Of a DNA stretch of 64,000 nucleotides, positions 25,503-58,319 are shown one piece after another (positions within the stretch are counted from its first letter, which is position 1; every line of letters begins with the position of its first letter). This DNA comes from Gemmata massiliana. Lineage in GTDB: Bacteria; Planctomycetota; Planctomycetia; Gemmatales; Gemmataceae. The position numbers and the translations under genes were made by a program. The stretch lies in contig HG799466.1 of the NCBI GenBank assembly GCA_000531095.1, positions 472,049 to 536,048 on the forward strand, read 5' to 3'. The notes under the pieces are model-generated. The model made no database searches. It saw only the letters and a program-made list of their open reading frames with translations, and had not been told where the DNA came from.

Positions 25503-25847
25503 TTACAAAATCTGATCGCAATCCAGGTACACGAACGCGGGCACGTTCCCATATGCGCGCCCGTGGCGGATGCCGAGGATGTGGTAGCTCTCGCTGCGGT
25601 CGGTCGTCTGTGCCTTCCAGCCCGGCACGGGTACCGCAGTAAGCACCGACGCGAGGATGGCGATGGTGTGCGACACCACGATGTTCGACTGCGCGTACAG
25701 CGTTTGCGTCGATGCGCTAGTGGTGTTGATGCTGCACGGGATACCGCTCTGGGCGACCGTGTACGTGGGCAAAACACCAGCGCCGGTGTCAGCTCCGCTC
25801 GTGACGCTGTAAAGCGCAATCGAGTGCGGCGGGTTGTCCCACAACAT
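25503..25847 (-). CDS. Head-tail joining (head closure-like) protein
   Basis: 114 residues. Start overlaps the methyltransferase stop (TAATG). Beta-rich with IPCSINTTSASTQTLYAQ and SYHILGIRHGRAYGNVPAF, which fits small head completion or stopper proteins; position after the connector protein supports this. Confidence 0.55.
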   Translation of the reverse strand: MLWDNPPHSIALYSVTSGADTGAGVLPTYTVAQSGIPCSINTTSASTQTLYAQSNIVVSHTIAILASVLTAVPVPGWKAQTTDRSESYHILGIRHGRAYGNVPAFVYLDCDQIL

Positions 25848-26689
25848 TACACGGCCTCCGCAAAGAGATCGTTCGAGGCACCCGCGGTCGCTAATCGCGC
25901 GCGGATGATGTCGCAGTGCTTGGCGTCCTGTTCAATACCTACGGCCCGCATCCCCTCTTGCTGCGCCGCGAGGAGTGTCGTGCCACTGCCGGCGAACGGA
26001 TCGAGAACAATCCCGCCCGGCGGGGTGAGATACCGCACCCACCATCGAGTTAGTGCGAGTGGGGTCATAGCCGTGTGCTTGCCACCTGATTTCGACTGCT
26101 CTTCTCCCACGCACGCAAACGGCAGCACGTTGTATGGCGTGACTCCAGATTCTCCGCTTGCGGTCGAACGCACACGATCCATCCCGTGGCCGGACGGATG
26201 CGACTCGCGCCCAGCTCGGGCCGTCATACGCCTTTTTCGGTTCTCGTCGGACTCCGTCCATTTCACGGCCAATTGGTTGCGATAACAGTGAGGCGTGCCG
26301 AGCCAAACACACCATTTCACGGACGGGCGCATCAACTTGCCTTGAATGCTGTGGGCTTCGGGAATTGCGTTGACTGACCACCAGTAGGCGTCTTGCACCA
26401 AGCCCCATTCCTTGCCCCACTTTAAAACAAATTCCCACAGCCACAGCCGCATCTTCCCGAGACGCTCGCTATTCGGCTGCAAAATGAACACGGCACTGCG
26501 CGTCGGCTTGAGCACGCGGCGGCACTCTGGAACTACCACGTCCATCAACTCGAACCATGGAGATTCGGTCCAGTACCCGTAGGGTCGCTTAATACACGGG
26601 TACGGCGGGTCGGTAACGACGGAATCGACCGATCCGGCCGCGAGGGTCGGTAGCACGGCGCGGCAGTCCCCTTCGTGGAGGTGCGCCAT
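25847..26689 (-). CDS. DNA adenine/cytosine-N4 methyltransferase
   Basis: 280 residues from MAHLHEGDCRAVLPTLAAGS. Catalytic DPPYPC near residue 37 and the AdoMet-binding loop DPFAGSGTTLLAAQQ near residue 225: the DPPY-first order of beta-class N6-adenine or N4-cytosine enzymes. The first strand-loop (GDCRAVLPTL) is typical of that class. No restriction partner nearby, so likely self-protection against host restriction. It overlaps the connector gene by 1 nt (TAATG) and sits between two head-tail genes. Confidence 0.85.
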   Translation of the reverse strand: MAHLHEGDCRAVLPTLAAGSVDSVVTDPPYPCIKRPYGYWTESPWFELMDVVVPECRRVLKPTRSAVFILQPNSERLGKMRLWLWEFVLKWGKEWGLVQDAYWWSVNAIPEAHSIQGKLMRPSVKWCVWLGTPHCYRNQLAVKWTESDENRKRRMTARAGRESHPSGHGMDRVRSTASGESGVTPYNVLPFACVGEEQSKSGGKHTAMTPLALTRWWVRYLTPPGGIVLDPFAGSGTTLLAAQQEGMRAVGIEQDAKHCDIIRARLATAGASNDLFAEAV

Positions 26690-27360
26690 TACGCGAACCT
26701 CGGCTGCAGGTAGTTCGCGAGCATCCCGAGCACGTCGGGCGAGTTGACGGCAGCCGTCGCGGTGAACTGACTCGCCACACTCATCGAGTACCCGTTCCAG
26801 CTCTCCGAGTTCGTCGGCGCCCCGGTTTTGCGCCGGTTCATCAGCAGCGTCACGGCGGCGACGGCCGCCGCCTGAATATCCTCCGGTACCGACAGCGCGC
26901 CAACCTCGCACGCGACCTTTACGGCACCGCGTGAGCCGCCCAGCACGCTCGCGAGTGTGTGCGGGTACCGCCACCACTCCGCGCCCCACACGCTCCCGAT
27001 GCGGCGGATGATCCCCGCGCCCGCCCACTGGTTCTCCGGGTCGTCAATGTGCAGCACGTAATCGGTGCCTGGGGTGAGCAGGTCGGCACTCGTGAACCGG
27101 CTCGGGTCGCCGCCGGCACCACAGTTCAGGTACAGACTCGTAATCGACCGGATGGGGCGCCGCGGGAGCACGAGGTCGAGACTCAGTGGCGCGTCGCAGA
27201 TGAAGTCGGTGACCGTGAGCGGCTCGGCGACGAAGGGGAGTATCTTCTTGGCAATGGCGGCGCTGACCCCGGCGCACCACGCACTGAGCGCGGTGAGGTC
27301 GTCGCCGGACGGGCTTTGACCGGTGAACGCGCTCCACGTATTCGCGTCGATGAGAGCCAT
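26689..27360 (-). CDS. Head-tail connector protein
   Basis: 223 residues. N-terminal helices (LTALSAWCAGVSAAIAKKIL), central strands (PIRSITSLYLNCGAGGD), C-terminal helices (DIQAAAVAAVTLLMNRRK). This pattern resembles HK97 gp6-type connectors (adaptors) that follow the capsid gene. The GTTACCCC motif lies 22 nt before the ATG. Confidence 0.65.
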   Translation of the reverse strand: MALIDANTWSAFTGQSPSGDDLTALSAWCAGVSAAIAKKILPFVAEPLTVTDFICDAPLSLDLVLPRRPIRSITSLYLNCGAGGDPSRFTSADLLTPGTDYVLHIDDPENQWAGAGIIRRIGSVWGAEWWRYPHTLASVLGGSRGAVKVACEVGALSVPEDIQAAAVAAVTLLMNRRKTGAPTNSESWNGYSMSVASQFTATAAVNSPDVLGMLANYLQPRFA

Positions 27361-29344: not shown

Positions 29345-30610
29345 TCAGCGGGCTTCGAGCACGACGAACGGCGAGAGCTTGTTCGCGGAGTACGTCGGGG
29401 TGAGGGCCACCTTCCACCAGGGCATGCCCGCGTTCCGCATGTAGAACTTGAACGCGCGCTCGTGGTTGACGAACCGCACGTGGATGCTCTCTTCGGACTG
29501 CATGGGCTGGTACGTGCCCTCAAGGTACTCTTCCCAGTTCGAGAGGATGAGGTCGCCCGAGTCGCCCAGGGTCTTCGCGTACTCGGTGAAGAACAGCGGG
29601 CGCCCGAGCAACATGTCGGGGTGATCTTCCCGTGCGGACGGCTGCCACATCGGTTGCCCGCCGGTGCCCACCGCCTGGTTGAGCAGCATGAGCTGCGGCA
29701 TGGTGTCGTGGTTCGCGAGCCAGACCGCTTTGCTGTACCCCCAGCACCGGGCACGCATGTTGAGCACGTTCTCGTAGCGGATGGTGTCGGCCGGCTGGCC
29801 GCTCTCCTTCGACACGACCACGGTCGGCCCCAGGCTCCCCGAATCGAGCGCGGTCAGGATGCCGAGGTACTCGCCCACCCCGGTTCCGTAGAGCCGCTCT
29901 TTGATGAGGTGGTAGGTGAACTGGTCGTTGAACCCGGCGCTGAGCAGCGCGGTGAACGTCACCGGCGAATCGCGGAGCAGGTTTTCACTCGCGTAGCTCA
30001 GCCCGAACAGGTCGTGCGCTTCGAGCACCACCTGCTCGAACTGCATCTGGCTCGCGGTCGCCGCCACGGTGTCCGGGCGCCGCGTGACCGTGAGCCCGCC
30101 CGACACGCTCGTGGTGTGGTTCTTGTCGGTGCGCGCGTTGATTTTCACAATCGCGCTGCCCATCGGCACCTTGCGAGTGCGCGACCCAATGGGGTCGTTT
30201 TCCGGGTCGATCTTCAGGAAGTCGGGGCTGTACGTGGTCGGCAACAGGAACCCACCGTAGGGGTCCGAGTTCGTGCGCGCCTCGTCCGAGCCGACCGCCT
30301 TGAGGATAAACTCGCTTTCGGCTTTGCCCACATTCCCGGACCACAGCGGCAGCAGCCGCCGATCCATGTTCACGCCCGGGTTGTTGGTCGCCTTCATGAC
30401 GGCGCTTAAGAACTCGGCGTGGTTCTTGAACCCGTATGGGTCCGCGTTCGGGTCGCGCACTTGCGCGGGCAGCGACTTGGTGATGGCGTCCGCGATGAGC
30501 CGGGTGTGCTCCGCGGGTTCCATCGCGCCCTTCTTGATGACCTCTTGGGCCTTGCGCAGTTCCTCCTTAGCGTTCCGGAGTTCCTGCTTAACTTCTTCGA
30601 GTGCCGACAT
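29345..30610 (-). CDS. HK97-fold major capsid protein
   Basis: 421 residues. Short N-terminal coiled coil (delta-domain-like: EEVKQELRNAKEELRKAQEV), then the capsid core: GGFLLPTTYSPDFLKI, EQVVLEAHDLFGLSYASENL and the late segment LLGRPLFFTEYAKTLGDSGD-LILSNW, which is diagnostic of the Phage_capsid family. The short delta domain suggests that scaffolding comes from the adjacent protease fusion. The most abundant virion protein by expectation. Confidence 0.9.
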   Translation of the reverse strand: MSALEEVKQELRNAKEELRKAQEVIKKGAMEPAEHTRLIADAITKSLPAQVRDPNADPYGFKNHAEFLSAVMKATNNPGVNMDRRLLPLWSGNVGKAESEFILKAVGSDEARTNSDPYGGFLLPTTYSPDFLKIDPENDPIGSRTRKVPMGSAIVKINARTDKNHTTSVSGGLTVTRRPDTVAATASQMQFEQVVLEAHDLFGLSYASENLLRDSPVTFTALLSAGFNDQFTYHLIKERLYGTGVGEYLGILTALDSGSLGPTVVVSKESGQPADTIRYENVLNMRARCWGYSKAVWLANHDTMPQLMLLNQAVGTGGQPMWQPSAREDHPDMLLGRPLFFTEYAKTLGDSGDLILSNWEEYLEGTYQPMQSEESIHVRFVNHERAFKFYMRNAGMPWWKVALTPTYSANKLSPFVVLEAR

Positions 30611-33500: not shown

Positions 33501-33710
33501 ATGCGACGGTTCACACTCGAAGAAGGAATGACTTTGCTGATTCTCTCAGGACGTATCCGCGACGAGATAGACCCCACACTCGGCGACTTGATTGAGCGGG
33601 TGGCGGGCGGGGACGAATCGGCACTCGTCCCCGCGGTGGATAGACTCAAGGAATTGGGGCGTGAGGAGCAAGCGGAGAGGCTGAAGCGGCTGGTGAAGGG
33701 TAAATTCTAA
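33501..33710 (+). CDS. Small helical protein
   Basis: 69 residues with CAGGAG upstream. All helical (LEEGMTLLILSGRIRDEID, LKELGREEQAERLKRLVKG). Follows the HTH gene by 57 nt. Converges and overlaps with the giant gene by 4 nt. Unknown function. Confidence 0.55.
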   Translation: MRRFTLEEGMTLLILSGRIRDEIDPTLGDLIERVAGGDESALVPAVDRLKELGREEQAERLKRLVKGKF

Positions 33711-36700
33711 TTCCGCACCAGCCGTATTTGGTCGGGGTCGAAAACTACAGTCTCTTCCGCCTCCCACTCCTTGTAGTCCATGACGAGAAGTGCGTCATAG
33801 CCTTTAGCTTTTGCTTGAGCAATGATTTCGGGCATTTTGGACCGCATAATATCTGTGGTCCAGCCCTTTGACGACCGGTCGAACTTTACCTTGATTCCGT
33901 ACTCGGCGAGAGCTTCTTGTATTTGCGATGAACTCACGCGGTCGTCGCTGTCCTCGCCCTCTTCGCCTGCGCCAGTACCAAGCGAGGTAAGGTCTAAAGG
34001 CTTGCGCACATCGAGTTGCACCTCGTGCATGTGATGCCCGAATTCTCTCGCATGTCCCTCATCCGTCGAAAAGGATATTCCGCGACCGGTCACGTTGGCG
34101 AACTCGGATATCGGCGTTAGGGAGCCGTGATAGTATGAGACCTCGGACCAATTGGGCTCGCTCGGGCGCTCGTTATCTTCCGGTGCAGGCTCGTCGTCAA
34201 TTTCATCGGCTTCGTCGTCGTCATTTGTTTTGCCACTATTCTCTTCGTCCGCGTTATCCTCCGCGTCGTGGTGCGACTGCTCCGCGAACTCACGCCCGGC
34301 ATCCTTGGCCTCATCGCGATCCAATACCCACTCGCCCTCGTGGTCACGATTGTCTTTGTGGTCGAACGAGACGAATCGGTAAACAGTCACTTTGTCTTCG
34401 TCTTCATCTTCGGGTGAGTACTCGCCGGTTTCGACGTAGATTTGGTGCTCGTTATCGTTCTTATCGTGCCACTGCACGTAATTCGTATCCGCCCACGGCG
34501 TGCTTTCGCTGTTCACGCGAGAAGGGTCGATATCACTGCCTCCACCGTTTTTGGTCCAGCGCCCCACTTTATCTCGCGGCTCGTTCGGGTCAAACGCTTT
34601 CCGCTCGCCCGCTGTGAGTCGCAATACCGTCTTGTCACGCTTCGCCGTACTAAAGGTGAGCCGCTTGATTGTGGCTTCTTCGTTGGCTGTTCCCAAAGCC
34701 GCAAGCCCCGCCTTCACGTAGCCCACCGTCGCGTGCGGCTTGTACGTTGCCCACGTCTGGGTGTGCGGTAATCCTGCAAGTAGTTCATTAAGGCGAACGA
34801 GGTCCGGGCTTTCCACTTCGGCGTAGATGACGTCGTAGTCTTTTCCCGTCTCATCCCCTCTGAACGCATTCAGTGAGCCGAGCTTAACGTGGACGACACC
34901 GAACCCGTCTACGAGTCGCTCCACTTGCTCGGGGCCATCGGCGTGCAACCCGTACCGTGCCGTAATGTGCGGCTCTTCCTCTCGTCCATCTTCGCCCAAA
35001 TCCTTGTCCGCGATTTGCGCCGCCATCGCGAGCAATTTGCGTTTCGCTCGTCCCGTGAGTTCGACCTGTGTGCTCGCGTACTTTGCCTTCTTGCGGGGAT
35101 AGCAATGTTTGTTCGCGCAGTAAGCATTACCGTCGAGGCGGCGCTCGCACATAATCCCCGGTTCACGGCACTCCGGGCAGTAGCCGTAAGGTGCCGGGTC
35201 GCGAAAGCCATTGTCACCACCGGCGCGGATGTCGTTCTCGGTTACCAGGGCTTTCCGCTCGCTCGCCGGGAAGTGCGTCAGCAAACCCGTAACCCGCGCC
35301 GCCAGGTCTTCCACGGCCGCACGACTCTCGCCCAACCCTGTTCCCTCCAGCGCCTTCGCGCACTCTCCTGCGATGTGCTCAAGGTGCTGGCGCTGCTCGC
35401 TGCGGAACTTCGCGCTCTCGCGCTCGGCTTGCTCCCGCGTGCCCTCGGTGCGAGCCGCCAGTTCTTCGAGCCGTGCCTTGTGCTCTCCCACAGCGCGGGC
35501 GTAGTCGTCTGCCTGGGTCGCAAGCGACTCGTGACCCGTCTCGGAAATCTCCTGCTCCGCGTCGCGCGCGAAGTGCAAGTCCCACGGCAGAATCGGGTGA
35601 CTCGGGAACTCGCTGTTCTGTGCCGCGTCCAACGCATCCGCGATACCCGCCGTTGCCTCGTTGTCGCGTAGCGCGTCGAACTCGCCGCGGAACAGTGTGT
35701 ACTCGATTTCGCGGTTGAGCAGTTCGTCGGCGGTATCGATGCCCTCGGTGCGCTGCACCTCGCGGAGCAGATCGTTAATCTGGTCGTTGACCGCGTGCCA
35801 CGCGGCGCGGTGCTGGTCGATCTGCTCACGTAGTGCCGTTTCGGACTGCTCGGGCGCTACACCCAGCGCGGCATCACTGACACGGCCGCTGTCGTCGAGC
35901 AGGTGGTGGACGCCGTCGGGGAACAGCAGCGCCAGTTGTTTCAGCGTGCTGCGCTGAGCGTCTGTCAGGTTGTGCGTGGGCTTGTGCGCGCTGCCGGACC
36001 AGCGCCCCGCGTCGTCGCGCGGTTGTGAGGGGTTGAAGGCTTTCAGCTCGCCACGGTACCGCTTGTGGTCGTCATCGGCGTAGTAGGCGGCGTGCGCGTC
36101 CGGGTGCGATTCGCGGCGTGCGTGGTACCGTTCGCGGTCCCGGCTCGCGTGATCGGCGTCGTGCTTCGCGTGCATCTCGGCGCGAAGGCGCTCGGTCTCT
36201 TCGTCGTATTTCTCACCGAACGATTCAAGGTCCGCGTCGCGCTGCGCCTCAAGTTCGTCATCCTCTTTTTGACGCGCGTCACTAATCCGCTCGTCTTCTG
36301 CTCGACGTGCCGCGTCTTGCTGGTCACGGTACTGCTCGCGCCGGCTGGCGAACTCGCCGTCGTACTTTTCGTCAATCGCCTCGGTTGCCTTTTCGTACTC
36401 TTTTTCGGCTTTACTGAGACGCTGCTCGTGCCATTTTTCGAGGGCGTCTAACTGCTTGTAATACTCCGCGGGCGGGTCTTCTCCCGTTTCCTCGCTGTTG
36501 TCCAGTTTGAAGACTTCCTCTTCGCGCTGCTTGTACTCGCGGTCGATCGTCGCAAGCGCTTTGTCCCTCACTCGCCTCGCGGCAGTCAGTTCACTTTCGC
36601 GGTCCCGTGTGACTTCCCTGCGGATGCGCGCGAACGCCTTCTCGTCCTCGCGGACCCGTGCCCATTCGCGGTTCTCGTCCTCGATTTGGCGCTCTTTTAC

Positions 36701-37099
36701 GATCCGCTTATCGTCGCTGCGCCAGCCTTCAACTGAGCGGTCTTGGGCATCTTCGCGGTCGCGCTCACGGGCTTTGTCGTGCTTCTGGTCGCGAGCCTCA
36801 CGTTCCTGCTCCCGCTCCGACTCAATGGCGCTGTCTTCGTCGCTCCACTTGTCGTGAATCTCACTGTGGTCCGTCTCGTCGTCATCAGCCAACTCGAACA
36901 GTGGCGCACGCTCCGCGCCCACGAACTGCCCCGCATTGCCCGGCTGTCCGCGCGGGTGTTTGCGCTCGTCCCAGCCTTTGACGATGCGCAGCGTCTCCAG
37001 TGCGCCTTGTTCGCGCGCGGTATCGAGGGCACTGCGGAACAGCGCCACCTCGTCACGCGACAGGTTGAGGGCTTTGCGGAGTTGCTTCAGGCTGCTCAT
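33707..37099 (-). CDS. Giant multidomain phage protein: coiled coil, Acb1-like 2H phosphoesterase, ADP-ribosyltransferase-like
   Basis: 1130 residues. Order by approximate residue: 45-60 linker HPRGQPGNAGQF; 70-340 highly charged coiled coil; 353 linker AFNPSQPRDDAGRW; 370-620 more coiled coil; 640-670 Cys cluster (CPECREPGIMC ... YCANKHC); 705-800 2H phosphoesterase with HITARYGLH and HATVGYV, spacing and flanks (ESPDLVRLNELL) as in the phage anti-CBASS Acb1-like family; 841 linker AFDPNEPRDKVGRW; 990-1130 ART-like domain (YYHGS, GISFSTDEGHAREF, VFDPDQIRLV). Located between the portal and protease genes. A virion-delivered counter-defence polyprotein is inferred. Confidence 0.75.
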   Translation of the reverse strand: MSSLKQLRKALNLSRDEVALFRSALDTAREQGALETLRIVKGWDERKHPRGQPGNAGQFVGAERAPLFELADDDETDHSEIHDKWSDEDSAIESEREQEREARDQKHDKARERDREDAQDRSVEGWRSDDKRIVKERQIEDENREWARVREDEKAFARIRREVTRDRESELTAARRVRDKALATIDREYKQREEEVFKLDNSEETGEDPPAEYYKQLDALEKWHEQRLSKAEKEYEKATEAIDEKYDGEFASRREQYRDQQDAARRAEDERISDARQKEDDELEAQRDADLESFGEKYDEETERLRAEMHAKHDADHASRDRERYHARRESHPDAHAAYYADDDHKRYRGELKAFNPSQPRDDAGRWSGSAHKPTHNLTDAQRSTLKQLALLFPDGVHHLLDDSGRVSDAALGVAPEQSETALREQIDQHRAAWHAVNDQINDLLREVQRTEGIDTADELLNREIEYTLFRGEFDALRDNEATAGIADALDAAQNSEFPSHPILPWDLHFARDAEQEISETGHESLATQADDYARAVGEHKARLEELAARTEGTREQAERESAKFRSEQRQHLEHIAGECAKALEGTGLGESRAAVEDLAARVTGLLTHFPASERKALVTENDIRAGGDNGFRDPAPYGYCPECREPGIMCERRLDGNAYCANKHCYPRKKAKYASTQVELTGRAKRKLLAMAAQIADKDLGEDGREEEPHITARYGLHADGPEQVERLVDGFGVVHVKLGSLNAFRGDETGKDYDVIYAEVESPDLVRLNELLAGLPHTQTWATYKPHATVGYVKAGLAALGTANEEATIKRLTFSTAKRDKTVLRLTAGERKAFDPNEPRDKVGRWTKNGGGSDIDPSRVNSESTPWADTNYVQWHDKNDNEHQIYVETGEYSPEDEDEDKVTVYRFVSFDHKDNRDHEGEWVLDRDEAKDAGREFAEQSHHDAEDNADEENSGKTNDDDEADEIDDEPAPEDNERPSEPNWSEVSYYHGSLTPISEFANVTGRGISFSTDEGHAREFGHHMHEVQLDVRKPLDLTSLGTGAGEEGEDSDDRVSSSQIQEALAEYGIKVKFDRSSKGWTTDIMRSKMPEIIAQAKAKGYDALLVMDYKEWEAEETVVFDPDQIRLVRN

Positions 37100-37627: not shown

Positions 37628-40153
37628 TCACCCCTTCTGAGTTAGTTTCGCCACTAGCGCCGCGAACTCCGGGCGCACGCCTTTCTTGACCCTCGCACTT
37701 TGCGGTCGCTCCGGCAGGCTACCCTTGCCCGCGGGGTTGCTCGGTTTCGGCGGTGCGCCCGAAGTTGGACCCTTCGGCTTCGCGGACAACTTCGCGGTCT
37801 TGCCCGTCCGCTTGTCGCGAATCGTCACGTTGGGCATCGAGCCGCCGTTCTTCGCCGCGTGTGCCGCCGTCGCTCGTATCGCGCTGACGAGCAGTGCGTG
37901 GGCGCGCTCGCGTGTGATGCCGAAGTGCTGGGCAACGCGGTCGGCGTGGCGGTTCGCTTGTGTCGCCGCCCACTGGTCTGCGGTAGAGAGCGTCTGCTGT
38001 GCCTGCGGCGTGCGCGCCTGCACCTTCTGTGCGGCGCGCTGGTAGACCACATCGGGTAGCACACCGCCCGCCGCGATGAATCGCTGGAGGCTCGCGCCAT
38101 CGCGGATGGTGTGCCCCTGAACGGGTCCGTTGCCCGCGGTGAATAGCCGCACGGCGGGCTGCCCGTTGAGCAGCGCCGACGCAAGGCGGTCGTGGTTGGC
38201 GATGGCAGGTGGCGATACGGGTTGCGCGGCTGCGTTCGCTTCGGGGCGTCCTAGCTTCGCCTGTGCCCGGTTCGACCGCTTCGTTGCCGCGTCGAGTTGT
38301 TGGCGCAACTGCTCGATGTGCGATTGCTTGGCGTCGTGCCGCTTCATCGCGTCGGTAAGAGCGGCGCGAACCTTGTCGAGTTGTTTCTGCGCGCCACGCC
38401 GTTCACGAGCAACGTGCCGGTCGTCACTGTCGCGGTCGCCCTCGTTCGCGTAGGTGATACCATCGTGTCGAGACGGGTACCGCCCGTCAGCGCCCGCCGG
38501 GTGCGGCGCGAGGACGATCTTGCCGTTGCGCTTCGTGTACTTCAGACCGTCATTGCCAGTCCACACCTGCCCCTCTTGCCGCTTCTGTCGCACCGCCTTT
38601 TGCACGCTGTCGTCTTGCTGCTGGTCGTCCTGTGGTACAACGAGCGTTTCCAGCGCCGCCGCGGTCACAGCGTTCTGCGTCTCGTCGCTCTGGTCGTCGG
38701 TCGGCTGGTCTTCAGCCCCCTCCCCATCTGGTAGGGGGGCTCCGCCCATCTCGTCCGGCATCGGGGCAGGCGCCGGGGGCGGCGCGACCATGTTCATGAC
38801 CCATGCGCTGTACGCTTTGGGCGGCATGTCTCCGCCGTTGATGGGCGGCATGTCGTCGCGCGCCCGGAGCTCGTTCACGAGAATCGCGTCGGCGCTGATG
38901 AGGTCTTGGACGCTCGGCTCTGCGCGCTCCTTGTTGATGATGCGCGGTAACTGGAGCTTAATGCGGAACTCGCCCGGTCGCTTCTCCCACGGGCGGCACA
39001 ACCGCTGCGTGAAGAACTGGGCGTAGGTGCTAACGTCGTGGAGCAAGTCGTCGTGGAACTGCTGGCGCTGGGCGTAGCTCTTTGCGTAGTTGTCCGAGTC
39101 GTCCAGACCCGCGACACCGGGAGGCACGCGGAAAATGGCACACAGCATCTTCGCGACCTGAATCCACGACTCGTTGAAATCCAACTCCAGCGCGCTCGGG
39201 CTGGCCTGTTCGACCTTGAATTGGCCACCGGGGGTGCCGTCCGGAGCGCTCAGGAAGTTAATCGACCGCGCGTTCCGGGCACCGGCGAACCGCTGCTTGT
39301 ATTCCTCTTTGGCGCGGTCGAGCGTGTCCTGACCAGCGCCCGGGATGTATACCAGCGTACCCGTCACCTGCCCTTGCAGCATGTGCGAGTGGCGTGCGAG
39401 GTCGATTTGCTCCAGGATGTCCATCCACACGCCGCACGCGCTGAACGCGGCGTAACCGTCCGTGCGGGTCAGTGGGTGCGGGTTCCGGAGCGCGCCGACC
39501 TCGCGGCCGGGCAGCCGTGTGTTGAGTGCGAGGCGGTTCGACAGCCCGCCATAGGCCCACATCGTGCCCGAAGCGTAGTACGGTGTAACCTGCCAATACC
39601 CCTCCGGGTACTGCGGGCTACCTTGCCCCTGCGGTGTGGTCAGCGCAGTGTGCAGCGGGTACATCTGGCACGGCTTCGCCTCGTCCGCGCGCGACGGTAC
39701 GAACCACACCAGCGCGCTACCCGTGAGGTTGCGCTGCAGGTCCATGTACGAGAGCAGTGACCCGAACGTGTCCGGTCCGTCGGGGCCGTTGGGGTACTGA
39801 ACAAGTTGGCTCAGCGGGTGGTCATGAATGGGCACGTAGTCCTGGTCGTTACCCTGCCCGCCGTTGGGCGCCAGCGCCTTAACGAACGAGGTAGCACCTG
39901 CCCCGAAGGTTGTCCGGTCCCGACGCTTGCGGCGCTCCACGCACGCGGCTACCGACGACATTTCCGAGCGCCTACGGTCGATGGCGATATACGCCATGTT
40001 GGTGTAGTGCGTGCTCTGCTCGAGGCGGTTGTCGGTCCACTGTCCGGGGATTTGACGCTTGAAGTACTCGATGAGCGTCGCGCCCTGCTGCAACTGCACG
40101 GGGTCGCGCTCGGGCTCGCGGTACGGCTCTGGGAATAGGCTGGTGCCTGCCAT
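37628..40153 (-). CDS. HK97-type portal protein with long C-terminal extension
   Basis: 841 residues from MAGTSLFPEPYREPE (40153), fixed by the motif 23 nt upstream. Residues about 50-480 form the portal: MAYIAIDRRRSEMSSVAACV, NLTGSALVWFVPS, then WIQVAKMLCAIFRVPPGVAG and SYAQRQQFHDDLLHDVSTYA. The last 370 residues are extra: TGNDGLKYTKRNGKIVLAPH, coiled coil with QKQLDKVRAALTDAMKRH, an HTH-like HFGITRERAHALLVSAI and a basic tail. The extension may scaffold, bind DNA or recruit the next genes' products. Confidence 0.85.
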   Translation of the reverse strand: MAGTSLFPEPYREPERDPVQLQQGATLIEYFKRQIPGQWTDNRLEQSTHYTNMAYIAIDRRRSEMSSVAACVERRKRRDRTTFGAGATSFVKALAPNGGQGNDQDYVPIHDHPLSQLVQYPNGPDGPDTFGSLLSYMDLQRNLTGSALVWFVPSRADEAKPCQMYPLHTALTTPQGQGSPQYPEGYWQVTPYYASGTMWAYGGLSNRLALNTRLPGREVGALRNPHPLTRTDGYAAFSACGVWMDILEQIDLARHSHMLQGQVTGTLVYIPGAGQDTLDRAKEEYKQRFAGARNARSINFLSAPDGTPGGQFKVEQASPSALELDFNESWIQVAKMLCAIFRVPPGVAGLDDSDNYAKSYAQRQQFHDDLLHDVSTYAQFFTQRLCRPWEKRPGEFRIKLQLPRIINKERAEPSVQDLISADAILVNELRARDDMPPINGGDMPPKAYSAWVMNMVAPPPAPAPMPDEMGGAPLPDGEGAEDQPTDDQSDETQNAVTAAALETLVVPQDDQQQDDSVQKAVRQKRQEGQVWTGNDGLKYTKRNGKIVLAPHPAGADGRYPSRHDGITYANEGDRDSDDRHVARERRGAQKQLDKVRAALTDAMKRHDAKQSHIEQLRQQLDAATKRSNRAQAKLGRPEANAAAQPVSPPAIANHDRLASALLNGQPAVRLFTAGNGPVQGHTIRDGASLQRFIAAGGVLPDVVYQRAAQKVQARTPQAQQTLSTADQWAATQANRHADRVAQHFGITRERAHALLVSAIRATAAHAAKNGGSMPNVTIRDKRTGKTAKLSAKPKGPTSGAPPKPSNPAGKGSLPERPQSARVKKGVRPEFAALVAKLTQKG

Positions 40154-40175
40154 AGCCCCGATTTTGCAGGGCTGT

Positions 40176-40186
40176 GGGGGAACTTG
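40176..40186 (-). promoter_or_regulatory. AGTTCCCCC motif site 9
   Basis: CAAGTTCCCCC on the minus strand, 23 nt from the portal ATG. GGGGCT precedes the ATG. Confidence 0.65.
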
Positions 40187-40194
40187 CGGGCGAG

Positions 40195-40815
40195 TTAAAA
40201 CGGTATCGGTAGGGCAAAGGTAATGTGCGGCCACCTCAGTTCAAGCACGCATTGAGGTATCGTACCAGTTACTTCAATTTCCCGCTCGTGCTGGTCGGCA
40301 TGTTGACGTATATCCTGCCACGCAAACCGTCGCTGTGCCGAGTCGTTGTGCAGTCCCACATCACATTCGGCTCCTTGCAGCAACGGAATGTCCGTCAGCC
40401 TCACCTCTCGCACGGGGTGCTGCGAGAGGATTGAGTCAGCGTGCTGGAGCCAGTAGGCGGCAGCACAGGTGATCTCGCCTACGAACCCACGCCGCAGGCT
40501 GTCGCGGTTCATGTAATTGGTTAGCCTGGGCACTCCTTCCCATTGACGGTAGTTGCGCTTCCATAGCGCCCAGGCTCGGCGGTGAAGTGCGCACCAGTCG
40601 CACGCGGACGAGCGACAGTATTGGTGCCGCCTGCTGGCTGGCTTGGAACACTTGATGGTGTGCGGGCCACCCGAATGTAATTTCACCTGCACCCGAATGA
40701 ACTCCGCCCGCTCGTGCTGCCCCTGCGCATCGAGTTCGTCGGCGTACATCAGGCGCGGCGTGTCCTCGTCGGGGTGTGCGAGTACCGCAGCGAGTATCGC
40801 GTCGAGGTCGGTCAT
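40195..40815 (-). CDS. TIGR02996-domain protein
   Basis: 206 residues. N-terminus LDAILAAVLAHPDEDTPRLM then YADELDAQGQHERAEFIRVQ is the repeat-companion domain abundant in Gemmata-group planctomycetes. A Cys-rich stretch (CSKPASRRHQYCRSSACDWC) may bind zinc. The rest is unassigned. It sits between terminase and portal genes, an unusual place for this family. Confidence 0.75.
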   Translation of the reverse strand: MTDLDAILAAVLAHPDEDTPRLMYADELDAQGQHERAEFIRVQVKLHSGGPHTIKCSKPASRRHQYCRSSACDWCALHRRAWALWKRNYRQWEGVPRLTNYMNRDSLRRGFVGEITCAAAYWLQHADSILSQHPVREVRLTDIPLLQGAECDVGLHNDSAQRRFAWQDIRQHADQHEREIEVTGTIPQCVLELRWPHITFALPIPF

Positions 40816-41019: not shown

Positions 41020-42474
41020 TTACGCCCATCCGCCTTGCGGCTTGGTCAGCCTGTTGAACGCACCTGTACTACTATCGACTTGGTCCTTCCACTGACCGCG
41101 AGGAAATCCCTCGAGCTCGGTCAAATACGCTGCGCGCCATGATCCGCCAGCAAGCAGCTTTATCAGCCCGGCCTTCGCTGCGCCCGCCATTGGTTCCGCA
41201 CGAAGTTCTTTCGACCCAGCGCCCCCGACATTATCGGGGCTGGCTGGGTATCCGGAGAGCTTCGCGACGATGGCTCGCGAAGCCTGCCCATTCTTATCAA
41301 ACACCGGCTTCTCGAACCACGTCCGCTTGAACCCAGCCCGGGTACTGTCGCCCCGGGCAGTTTGCAGAATGGTTTCGTTTCGCTCGGCGGGCGCCCAACG
41401 GCCACGAATCACATCGCCAATGAAGTACCTGACGTTCTCGCCGGTACCGTGCCTCCCCATGAGAACGCCCGATGTAAAACACGCGGAATCGTCGCGGCTT
41501 GCAGCTAAATCCCAATACCGCACCCACTCCGTTCCCGCGGGCACCGCATCAACATCAAGAAACCAATCTCGCTGGAAGAATGAACCGCCACGGGGCACTT
41601 CATCTTGTTGATAAAGGCTCTGGAAACCGACCCCTTGCACTCGCTCCTTATCCGCTAACGCTTCGGCATCAAAGGCAGCGGGGCACAGTGGCGCACCTGG
41701 TTCGCGATTTAAAGGGTCAGCTTCACCGAGGGGCAAACCGAGCCTTTCGTGAACACGGTCTCGCTGCTCCTGCGTCTCGGCGATCGCGGGCAAGCGAACG
41801 AATCGCCATGCGTCTTTGTCTTCCGACTTGAGCACCCGCCCGATGAGGTCGCCCGCGTTCCATCGCGTGTGAATGAGGATGTACGCGCCGCCCTTTTGGA
41901 TACGAGGAGTGACGTCGTCCATGTGCCACTCCCACACTTTCTCTTGAACTGTCGCACTATCCGCCTGCTCGCGATTCTTAAACGGGTCGTCACAAATCCA
42001 CAGATCCACGGGTTCGCCCGCAAGCCCGACACCAGCGCCGCGAGCGATGTAACTCGAACCGTTTGGAAGGTTCCATGAGTCCACAGCACCGGTAGCCTCA
42101 ATACCGAGGCGGTCCAATAATCGCCTGGTCCAACGGCTAATTTTGTTCGCGTAACGCTGGTTGTACGTGCCCACACCGACGCGCAATCCCGGTTCGCGGA
42201 GCATGCGCCACAACGGGTATCGAACGGTGGTGGACCACGTTTTGTAGTGCTGGGGAGGCCACGCAATCGCTAACTTGCGGCACGTGCCCAGTGTGACATC
42301 CGCAAGTTGACGGCGAATAAATTTGAGATGGTGGTGATCCCAGACAAGTTCGGGGCTAGCCTCTACGAGCCATTTCGTAAATGACGGAAACTCACTCGAC
42401 AGAATCGAGACTGGCTGTGCTACCGGTTGCAGACGCTGTGTCTTGCGCTTCAGCACCTCGAACGGACTGGGCAC
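41020..42474 (-). CDS. terL: Terminase large subunit
   Basis: 484 residues from a GTG at 42474 (PSPFEVLKRKTQRLQ), with AGGGG 6 nt upstream; it overlaps terS by 83 nt. ATPase: atypical Walker A AWPPQHYKTW near residue 75, Walker B VDLWICDDPF near 160, coupling motif HTRWNAGDL. Nuclease domain: RYWDLAASRDDSA near 318 and later GGAGSKELRAEP. Pumps DNA into proheads with the portal and cuts the concatemer. Confidence 0.85.
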   Translation of the reverse strand: MPSPFEVLKRKTQRLQPVAQPVSILSSEFPSFTKWLVEASPELVWDHHHLKFIRRQLADVTLGTCRKLAIAWPPQHYKTWSTTVRYPLWRMLREPGLRVGVGTYNQRYANKISRWTRRLLDRLGIEATGAVDSWNLPNGSSYIARGAGVGLAGEPVDLWICDDPFKNREQADSATVQEKVWEWHMDDVTPRIQKGGAYILIHTRWNAGDLIGRVLKSEDKDAWRFVRLPAIAETQEQRDRVHERLGLPLGEADPLNREPGAPLCPAAFDAEALADKERVQGVGFQSLYQQDEVPRGGSFFQRDWFLDVDAVPAGTEWVRYWDLAASRDDSACFTSGVLMGRHGTGENVRYFIGDVIRGRWAPAERNETILQTARGDSTRAGFKRTWFEKPVFDKNGQASRAIVAKLSGYPASPDNVGGAGSKELRAEPMAGAAKAGLIKLLAGGSWRAAYLTELEGFPRGQWKDQVDSSTGAFNRLTKPQGGWA

Positions 42475-42877
42475 CTTTAGTCCCCTGTTGTGCCACGGCT
42501 GCGATCTGCTTCGCCAGCGCCCGGAGTTCACCCCGATTAGTAGCCCACCGCTGTGGGAACCGCCGCTCCAAAATCCACGCCAGCGCCTGCCACGCCTCGG
42601 TGCCAGCGGCTTGAATCACACTGAGGTAATCGGACTCGGCTTCCGCCATCGCCTTTTTAACTGCGTCGGAAAACCTGACTTCTTTGTCATAATCGGAATT
42701 CGGCTCTTTACCCTGATCGCGTCGCCTTGCTTCTCGCGAACCCGTCTTGAGCCAGTCGTAAAACGTGTCCTTGTGGATGCCGAGTGAGGCTGCGACGGTC
42801 TCGACGTACAGGCACCGTTTCACCAAGTCTGCAGCTTCGGTGATGATCTTGTCAGTGAGTTCGCGGGGACGAGCCAT
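42392..42877 (-). CDS. terS: Terminase small subunit
   Basis: 161 residues. N-terminal HTH (KRCLYVETVAASLGIHKDTF), helical oligomerisation region (AVKKAMAEAESDYLSVIQAA) and WQALAWILERRFPQRWA, the usual ending of the DNA-recognition core in terminase small subunits. Directly upstream of terL and preceded by a motif at 22 nt. Binds the packaging site. Confidence 0.75.
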   Translation of the reverse strand: MARPRELTDKIITEAADLVKRCLYVETVAASLGIHKDTFYDWLKTGSREARRRDQGKEPNSDYDKEVRFSDAVKKAMAEAESDYLSVIQAAGTEAWQALAWILERRFPQRWATNRGELRALAKQIAAVAQQGTKGAQSVRGAEAQDTASATGSTASLDSVE

Positions 42878-57098: not shown

Positions 57099-58319
57099 AT
57101 GGGCAGGGTTTTTCAGCCGGTGTATTGGAAGAAAATGCCTGATGGTTCCCGTGTGGGGAAGAAAAGCAAGTTGTGGCACGCGGAATGGCAAGTTGCGGGG
57201 GCAACCAGGCGGCGGTGCATCGGGACTAAAACGGCAGCCCTTGCTGCCTTGGTCAAATTCGAGGACGCTGAGAGCCGGCGGAAACACGGTCTCGTAAATC
57301 GCGCTGCGGAGGGCGCCCGACAAAGCGACCACCTCGAGGATTTAGTGACCGAATACATCGACATACTCGCCGCGCGGGGGACCGCGGAAGAGTACCGCAA
57401 GAATACTCTCGCGAGCCTCACGCGGGTATTAAAAGAGTGCCGGTGGCACGTGTGGAGCGACATCGACCAAGACGAGTTCGTGCGATTTTTGGGGCGGCTC
57501 CGGAACACCCCGCGGGTGAAACTCATCACCGGCGCCGCGAAGGGAAAGAAAGGCAGGGGAGCGCCACCCATCAAAGGGAAACAACTCGGCTCGGGGTGCA
57601 GCCCGGCGACCCTCAACGGTCACATGCGAATCGCAAAAGCGTTTACCAAATGGCTCGCTGAGCGGTTCGGGGCGGTGTCGCCACTTAGAAAACTGCGGCC
57701 GTACCCGGAAGCCGTGGATGAGCGCAGGTCAAAACGCATCCTCACAGACGACGAGCTAAGTAAACTCATCACCGCCGCAGCCGCGGCGAAACGAAAAGGG
57801 ACCGCAACCGTTTGGGGCCGGGACCGGGCCATACTCTACACGATTGCTGCGTTCTCGGGCCTGCGCGCGGGTGAATTGTCCGACCTGACACCGGGGCACT
57901 TTTCGTTGGATGCCGCGCCGCCGGTCGTCACGGTCGAGGCGGCCGACGCAAAGGGGAAACGCACCGAACCAATTCCACTTCCCGACCACGTGGTCGAACT
58001 GCTGCGCCCGTGGCTCGTCGCGCGTAAACCGAACCAAAAACTGTTTCCGGGCAACTGGGCAGCGTGTCGTAAGCAATCGCACTGGCTCGCGGCGGATCTG
58101 CGGCGCGCCGGAGTAGACGCGCGGGACGAGAAAGGGCGGCCGGCCACTTTTCACTCGCTCAAGCGACGGTTCGTGGTGCGACTGATTCAAGCGGGCGCGA
58201 AGATCCACGAAGTGCGTCGGATGGCGCGCCACACCGACATTTCCACGACACTCAAGCACTACACCGACGAGAACCTGAGCGACCTCGGAGCGCTGGCGAA
58301 CCGTCTTCGTAAACTCTGA
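57099..58319 (+). CDS. int: Tyrosine-recombinase phage integrase
   Basis: 406 residues. N-terminal arm-binding region (WHAEWQVAGATRRRCIGTK), core-binding helices (YIDILAARGTAEEYRKNTLA), catalytic domain with GLRAGEL (Arg I, near 256), FHSLKRRFV (near 352), ARHTDISTTLKHYT (near 375-388) with the nucleophile Tyr. In the HxxR box the expected Arg is Lys (HSLK), a possible weakening. Integrates at the tRNA-Leu 130 bp downstream. Confidence 0.85.
   Translation: MGRVFQPVYWKKMPDGSRVGKKSKLWHAEWQVAGATRRRCIGTKTAALAALVKFEDAESRRKHGLVNRAAEGARQSDHLEDLVTEYIDILAARGTAEEYRKNTLASLTRVLKECRWHVWSDIDQDEFVRFLGRLRNTPRVKLITGAAKGKKGRGAPPIKGKQLGSGCSPATLNGHMRIAKAFTKWLAERFGAVSPLRKLRPYPEAVDERRSKRILTDDELSKLITAAAAAKRKGTATVWGRDRAILYTIAAFSGLRAGELSDLTPGHFSLDAAPPVVTVEAADAKGKRTEPIPLPDHVVELLRPWLVARKPNQKLFPGNWAACRKQSHWLAADLRRAGVDARDEKGRPATFHSLKRRFVVRLIQAGAKIHEVRRMARHTDISTTLKHYTDENLSDLGALANRLRKL

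What the first reader, a model, noticed from the sequence alone, without database searches (positions are those of the whole stretch)
33707..37099. Giant portal-adjacent protein combining an Acb1-like anti-CBASS domain with an ADP-ribosyltransferase-like domain
Seen: HITARYGLH and HATVGYV about 80 residues apart with the flanking pattern of phage Acb1-like 2H phosphoesterases, a Cys cluster, long coiled coils, and a C-terminal YHG / FST / DPDQI block like small ART domains. Known: Acb1 degrades the cyclic nucleotide signals of CBASS; phage ART proteins such as Alt are injected with DNA; polyvalent phage proteins join several counter-defence domains. Inference: this is a virion-associated, possibly protease-processed polyprotein delivering anti-defence enzymes.
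Basis: partly seen in the sequence, partly recalled or inferred. Interest (0 to 1): 0.87.

Follow-up and report, generated by a model that had tools for sequence, protein, structure and literature searches.

The report
Phage head-module protein with effector domains
A prophage in a planctomycete bacterium has, next to its DNA-entry (portal) gene, a gene for a long protein carrying two enzyme domains, a 2H phosphoesterase related to the viral anti-immunity enzyme Acb1 and an ADP-ribosyltransferase, probably carried in the virus particle and sent into the new host; proteins of this kind were predicted before, but this one adds a clear case in which one carrier swaps its cargo.

Summary
ORF 33707-37099(-), 1130 aa, lies one gene from the portal in an integrase-bearing Gemmata-type prophage. 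The 2H domain passes Pfam's cut-off, keeps both HxT motifs (711, 789) and gives a confident model with the 2H fold (pLDDT 88.7). The C-terminus, taken alone, passes Pfam ART-PolyVal (40.6 bits against 31.2); its model is poor. Acb1 kinship is partial: the 2H family's profile finds Acb1 first among solved structures, but the window's domain fails Pfam's Acb1 cut-off and the fold ties with LigT and CPDase. In 79 relatives the 2H domain is fused to portals of four families in 23, to MuF in one, and lies in ORFs over 1000 aa in 34. A second Gemmata-type prophage keeps the first ~628 residues (dN/dS 0.13) but carries different C-terminal cargo. This is a polyvalent phage protein; Iyer et al. (2017) already predicted 2H-portal fusions of this kind. 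Possibly new: a PRDxxG[RKQ][WF] motif at structural/cargo junctions of many phage head-module proteins. Virion presence, injection, proteolysis and substrate remain untested; a canonical CBASS cyclase was not found in the host genome and is rare in its genus.

The parts
33707..37099 (-). whole ORF, 1130 aa, mosaic carrier plus cargo protein
   Evidence: carrier part under purifying selection against L003, dN 0.040, dS 0.311 over 620 codons
35216..37099 (-). residues 1-628: N-terminal carrier, charged and coiled-coil-like; no known family
   Evidence: no significant Pfam hit for the pieces; conserved (best segment 92% identical) in the second prophage L003, with identity falling off at residues ~600-628
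36923..36973 (-). motif copy 1, residues 43-59 (WDERKHPRGQPGNAGQF)
   Evidence: sequence; a similar copy (WDAGDHPRGQPDNAGQF) lies in the Mu-type portal ORF of L013
35999..36040 (-). motif copy 2, residues 354-367 (AFNPSQPRDDAGRW)
35096..35188 (-). Cys cluster, residues 638-668, zinc-ribbon-like
   Evidence: sequence; tblastn places this part on a Pectobacterium phage CBB protein (75-residue match, E 8e-3; sequence)
34607..35083 (-). residues 673-831: 2H phosphoesterase domain; HIT 711-713 and HAT 789-791
34556..34597 (-). motif copy 3, residues 835-848 (AFDPNEPRDKVGRW)
   Evidence: residues 835-858 resemble the N-terminus of phrog_12708, head maturation protease, E 0.0021
34235..34522 (-). residues 860-955: small module with copies in L003's swapped region
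   Evidence: read from the sequences; no significant Pfam hit
33713..34135 (-). residues 989-1129: ADP-ribosyltransferase domain, ART-PolyVal
   Evidence: H991 and E1116 invariant in a small 4-sequence alignment
37628..40234 (-). neighbouring portal protein with long C-terminal extension (context)
   Evidence: PF04860, 9.6e-16; phrog_12, 4.3e-25
29345..30610 (-). major capsid protein (context)
   Evidence: PF05065, 1.7e-28
41020..42531 (-). terminase large subunit (context)
   Evidence: phrog_38, 3e-71

Best explanation
A polyvalent phage protein made with the head genes. The N-terminal 628 residues are a carrier that binds the head or portal (inferred); the C-terminal half is exchangeable cargo: a Cys-rich ribbon, a 2H phosphoesterase and an ADP-ribosyltransferase. 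It is carried in the virion and enters the host with the DNA (inferred from homologous 2H domains fused to portal and MuF proteins). There the 2H domain most likely hydrolyses an oligonucleotide immune signal or another 2'-5' or 2',3'-cyclic phosphate (chemistry inferred from fold and intact HxT pairs; substrate unknown), and the ART modifies a host molecule (inferred). Shown here: domains, fold of the 2H, catalytic motifs, gene position, selection on the carrier, cargo replacement. Inferred: packaging, injection, substrates.
For: 2H: Pfam above cut-off, model pLDDT 88.7 with Z 15.9-12.5 to LigT, CPDase, Usb1 and Acb1, HxT pair kept in 69 of 69 relatives, the first one not being part of the search pattern. 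ART: ART-PolyVal 5.5e-10. Delivery context: between portal and capsid; 23 of 79 2H relatives fused to portals of four Pfam families, one to MuF, 34 in ORFs over 1000 aa; three Gemmataceae relatives are portal-2H fusions. A jumbo phage, Tunturi_5, has SprT-like, 2H, ART-PolyVal and GNAT in one ORF between connector and tail genes. Cargo: L003 keeps residues 1-628, then differs. Literature: PMC5512222 and PMC9503650 predict this for 2H-MuF and 2H-portal fusions.
Against: No direct evidence that the protein is in the virion or injected; this carrier is not itself a portal or MuF protein and matches no family. The ART model is poor (pLDDT 65.5) with no significant structural match. SMODS was not found in the own genome and in 1 of 19 genus genomes, Cas10 in 4 of 19 but not the own genome, so the proposed signal target is not evident in this host. 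The 2H substrate cannot be read from the fold.
Confidence: 0.62

Rival explanations
1. The 2H domain is specifically an Acb1 enzyme that cleaves CBASS (or type III CRISPR) cyclic oligonucleotides.
For: The family profile's best PDB matches are Acb1 of Burkholderia phage BCSR5 (6.3e-7; a second BCSR5 entry 6.2e-5), and FBB1 Acb1 follows at 5.4e-4 behind a plant CPDase at 1.2e-4; hhalign favours Acb1 over ThpR; one family member (L064) passes Pfam's Acb1 cut-off, 28.5 against 27; FBB1 Acb1 has the highest target-normalised TM-score in the Foldseek list, 0.75.
Against: Window domain 12.7 bits against 27 for Pfam Acb1; structural Z tied with LigT and CPDase; SMODS in 1 of 19 genus genomes and not in the own genome.
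Confidence: 0.4
2. 2H plus ART form an RNA-repair pair: 2H opens 2',3'-cyclic phosphates and a KptA-like ART removes the 2'-phosphate.
For: This pairing is known chemistry and discussed for phages.
Against: The ART matches ART-PolyVal, and no KptA (2'-phosphotransferase) family was listed up to E 10; the polyvalent-type 2H domains were reported not to associate with RNA ligases; the host has its own ThpR-type LigT gene.
Confidence: 0.1
3. The protein acts in the lysogen or late in infection (host takeover or exclusion of other phages), not from the virion.
For: The element is a prophage with an integrase; solo 2H relatives lie among non-structural genes in several phages.
Against: Position and strand inside the head gene block, and physical fusion of the same domain to portals and MuF in relatives.
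Confidence: 0.2
4. Mainly an internal head or scaffold protein; the enzymatic domains are dispensable passengers.
For: The carrier is conserved with dN/dS 0.13 while the cargo region differs between the two prophages.
Against: Catalytic residues kept in 69 of 69 2H relatives.
Confidence: 0.12

Closest known systems
Polyvalent proteins of phages (Iyer et al. 2017, PMC5512222)
   Same: multi-enzyme mosaic in the head gene block; 2H and ART-PolyVal domains; relatives fused to portal and MuF
   Different: carrier N-terminus matches no known family; PRDxxG[RKQ][WF] motifs flank the cargo
Acb1 (T4 57B, FBB1, BCSR5) anti-CBASS 2H nuclease
   Same: 2H fold, two HxT motifs; nearest solved family by sequence profile
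   Different: separate family; the window domain is below Pfam's Acb1 cut-off; fused to a carrier instead of stand-alone
MuF-type polymorphic phage effectors
   Same: virion-linked carrier with exchangeable C-terminal enzyme
   Different: no MuF domain found in this protein
T4 Alt (head-packaged ART)
   Same: proposed ART delivery with the DNA
   Different: different ART family; one domain among several

Membership tests
2H phosphoesterase superfamily | two HxT motifs about 80 residues apart | tested here: met
   711 and 789; kept in 69 of 69 relatives
2H phosphoesterase superfamily | profile above curated cut-off | tested here: met
   2_5_RNA_ligase2 29.1 against 27 in the whole protein, 33.2 for the isolated domain
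2H phosphoesterase superfamily | 2H fold | tested here: met
   model pLDDT 88.7, Z up to 15.9
Acb1 | Pfam PF23474 curated cut-off | tested here: not met
   12.7 bits against 27
Acb1 | cleavage of CBASS cyclic oligonucleotides | not testable with these tools
   needs biochemistry
ART-PolyVal (PF18760) | profile above curated cut-off | tested here: met
   40.6 against 31.2 for the isolated domain; the whole-protein scan missed it
ART superfamily | ART fold | tested here: inconclusive
   model pLDDT 65.5; best VIA row 6kyf, titled an anti-CRISPR protein, Z 2.6 over 84 residues
Polyvalent phage protein | two or more effector domains in one polypeptide, encoded with head genes | tested here: met
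Polyvalent phage protein | packaged and injected | not testable with these tools
   needs virion proteomics
MuF effector | MuF domain in the same protein | tested here: not met
   no PF04233 match up to E 0.1 in the whole protein and none up to E 1 in its pieces; a highly divergent MuF is not excluded
KptA/Tpt1 RNA repair | 2'-phosphotransferase family match for the ART domain | tested here: not met
   only ART-PolyVal and Glyco_hydro_114 were listed up to E 10

The most novel reading that the evidence does not exclude
The motif [FY]DPNQPRDxxG[RKQ][WF][TS] followed by a Gly-rich stretch is a portable junction or tag element of tailed-phage head modules, joining or directing varied effector domains (2H, ART, zeta toxin, Hint, kinase-like) to portal, protease and minor head proteins; the window protein uses three copies to hold its cargo.
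Probability: 0.3. Interest if true: 0.7.

Novelty: new member of a known kind. Interest (0 to 1): 0.45.

Why it matters
It gives a natural pair of closely related carriers with different effector cargo in two Gemmata-type prophages, a direct way to test virion delivery of anti-immune enzymes; it documents 2H domains fused to four types of portal protein; and it points to a recurrent junction motif that may help to find virion-delivered proteins.

Tried and rejected
ART model against PDB: no significant hit. ART tblastn in phage records: nothing significant. NCBIfam and PADLOC: nothing for this protein. N-terminal carrier: relatives only in L003 and the window's own element; hits L007 and L008 were the Cys-rich part and a charged coiled-coil stretch. 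Scans by the window's 2H sequence alone found only itself; the alignment was needed. My first reading of L003's cargo as GNAT is only weakly supported: no Pfam hit, although the three PDB sequence hits up to E 1 are acetyltransferases or an acetyltransferase homologue (best E 0.019). ART hits from my own iterated profile outside the window and L016 are provisional; L064's is not confirmed by Pfam, yet it is one of the four rows used for the ART model. Exact motif strings found no paper in the open library, which does not show novelty.

Full report
What is there. The ORF at 33707-37099 on the minus strand (1130 aa) lies in a head gene block: terminase 41020-42531, portal 37628-40234, this gene, capsid 29345-30610, all on the minus strand. 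An integrase at 57099-58319 and a near-identical IMG/VR entry of 60.6 kb (L002) show a prophage. The window is part of a 9.27-Mb genome of 22 contigs; a phage gene between portal and terminase carries the Gemmata domain TIGR02996.

2H domain. Pfam 2_5_RNA_ligase2 matches above its cut-off. With an alignment of 67 sequences the model reaches pLDDT 88.7, and VIA-align gives Z 15.9 over 155 residues to a Thermus LigT-like protein, 15.4 to the Deinococcus CPDase and 13.7 (135 of 137 residues) to FBB1 Acb1, so LigT, CPDase, Usb1 and Acb1 are about equal. A sequence profile of the family finds BCSR5 Acb1 first (6.3e-7), then a second BCSR5 entry, a plant CPDase, FBB1 Acb1 and Bacillus YjcG. Profile-profile scores: 62.0 to a T4-57B alignment, 49.6 to planctomycete ThpR, against 33.1 between the latter two. 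It is therefore an Acb1-related but separate 2H family; the window's own domain does not meet Pfam's Acb1 cut-off.

ART domain. Alone, residues ~985-1130 match ART-PolyVal at 40.6 bits against a cut-off of 31.2; the full-length scan missed it. H991 and E1116 are invariant in a four-sequence alignment, one row of which is unconfirmed. The structure model is poor, so the fold is not independently shown.

Where else the 2H domain occurs. An alignment-based scan gave 376 relatives in viral contigs, of which the best 80 were kept, and 11 loci in genomes. With loci from other searches this made 79 non-redundant ORFs: 23 have it fused to a portal (10 HK97-type, 7 portal_3-type, 3 lambda-type, 3 Mu-type), two of these also carrying MuF; 1 is fused to MuF without a portal; 34 lie in ORFs over 1000 aa without a detected portal (the window among them); 7 in mid-size ORFs and 14 in short ones. 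The sample is biased towards relatives of the window, and many long ORFs are cut by the fetched stretch. All 69 checked keep both HxT motifs. On a 79-row tree the portal label needs 11 changes (moderate support); in one starred Gemmataceae clade the same 2H sits on an HK97-type and on lambda-type portals (L011, L009, L010). Tunturiibacter phage Tunturi_5 has SprT-like, 2H, ART-PolyVal and GNAT domains in one 1362-aa ORF between connector and tail genes.

Cargo exchange. L003, from a second Gemmata-type prophage, keeps residues 1-628 (dN 0.040, dS 0.311) and then differs: the Cys-rich part, 2H and ART are absent and another C-terminus is present, perhaps GNAT-like (weak).

The motif. PRDxxG[RKQ][WF] occurs twice in the window protein, with a looser HPRGQPGNAGQF copy near the N-terminus. 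RD..G[RQKEH][FWY] was seen 25 times in the fetched ORFs against 4.2 expected by shuffling. An exact DNA scan for [FY]DPNQPRDxxG gave 50 viral stretches; in 46 distinct segments, positions outside the search pattern are conserved: W or F 42, R, K or Q 41, T or S 32, then Gly-rich. Motif-bearing proteins match portals, head maturation proteases, MuF and ART toxins. Where a portal core was found by my seeds, the motif lies after it. This is a correlation; function is not shown.

Literature. Iyer et al. 2017 (PMC5512222) and the 2022 survey PMC9503650 already describe 2H fusions to MuF and portal and propose RNase or anti-signal functions after injection. The finding is thus a new member of a known, still largely untested kind.

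Host target. SMODS cyclases: none in the own genome, 1 of 19 in the genus; Cas10 palm: none in the own genome, 4 of 19 in the genus, 3 over the cut-off. Absence by one profile in incomplete genomes is weak evidence, and a lysogen's genome need not show the immunity of other hosts.

Noticed in passing
40195-40815 (-): A phage gene between portal and terminase carries the Gemmata TIGR02996 repeat-companion domain (8.7e-19), a host-lineage domain inside a head gene block.
   Followed up: partly
L003:13482-15185: The gene before the capsid in the second prophage has an inserted Cys-rich segment (CPECGEAAKATCRCIRNDRWCKNGH) that the window's version lacks.
   Followed up: no
L116:320-2957, L113:3312-6740: Motif-bearing ORFs with ART domains; L113 combines an ART match, a 2H-like match and the motif in one ORF.
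   Followed up: partly
L092:4321-8682: Portal fused to 2H and a PI3/PI4-kinase-like domain.
   Followed up: no
L022:1747-6879: Portal fused to a pterin-4a-carbinolamine dehydratase and a 2H domain.
   Followed up: no
L074:5947-8394: 2H domain fused to an SLT lytic transglycosylase domain.
   Followed up: no
25847-27028 (-): DNA methyltransferase in the prophage (phrog_67, 1.3e-46).
   Followed up: no
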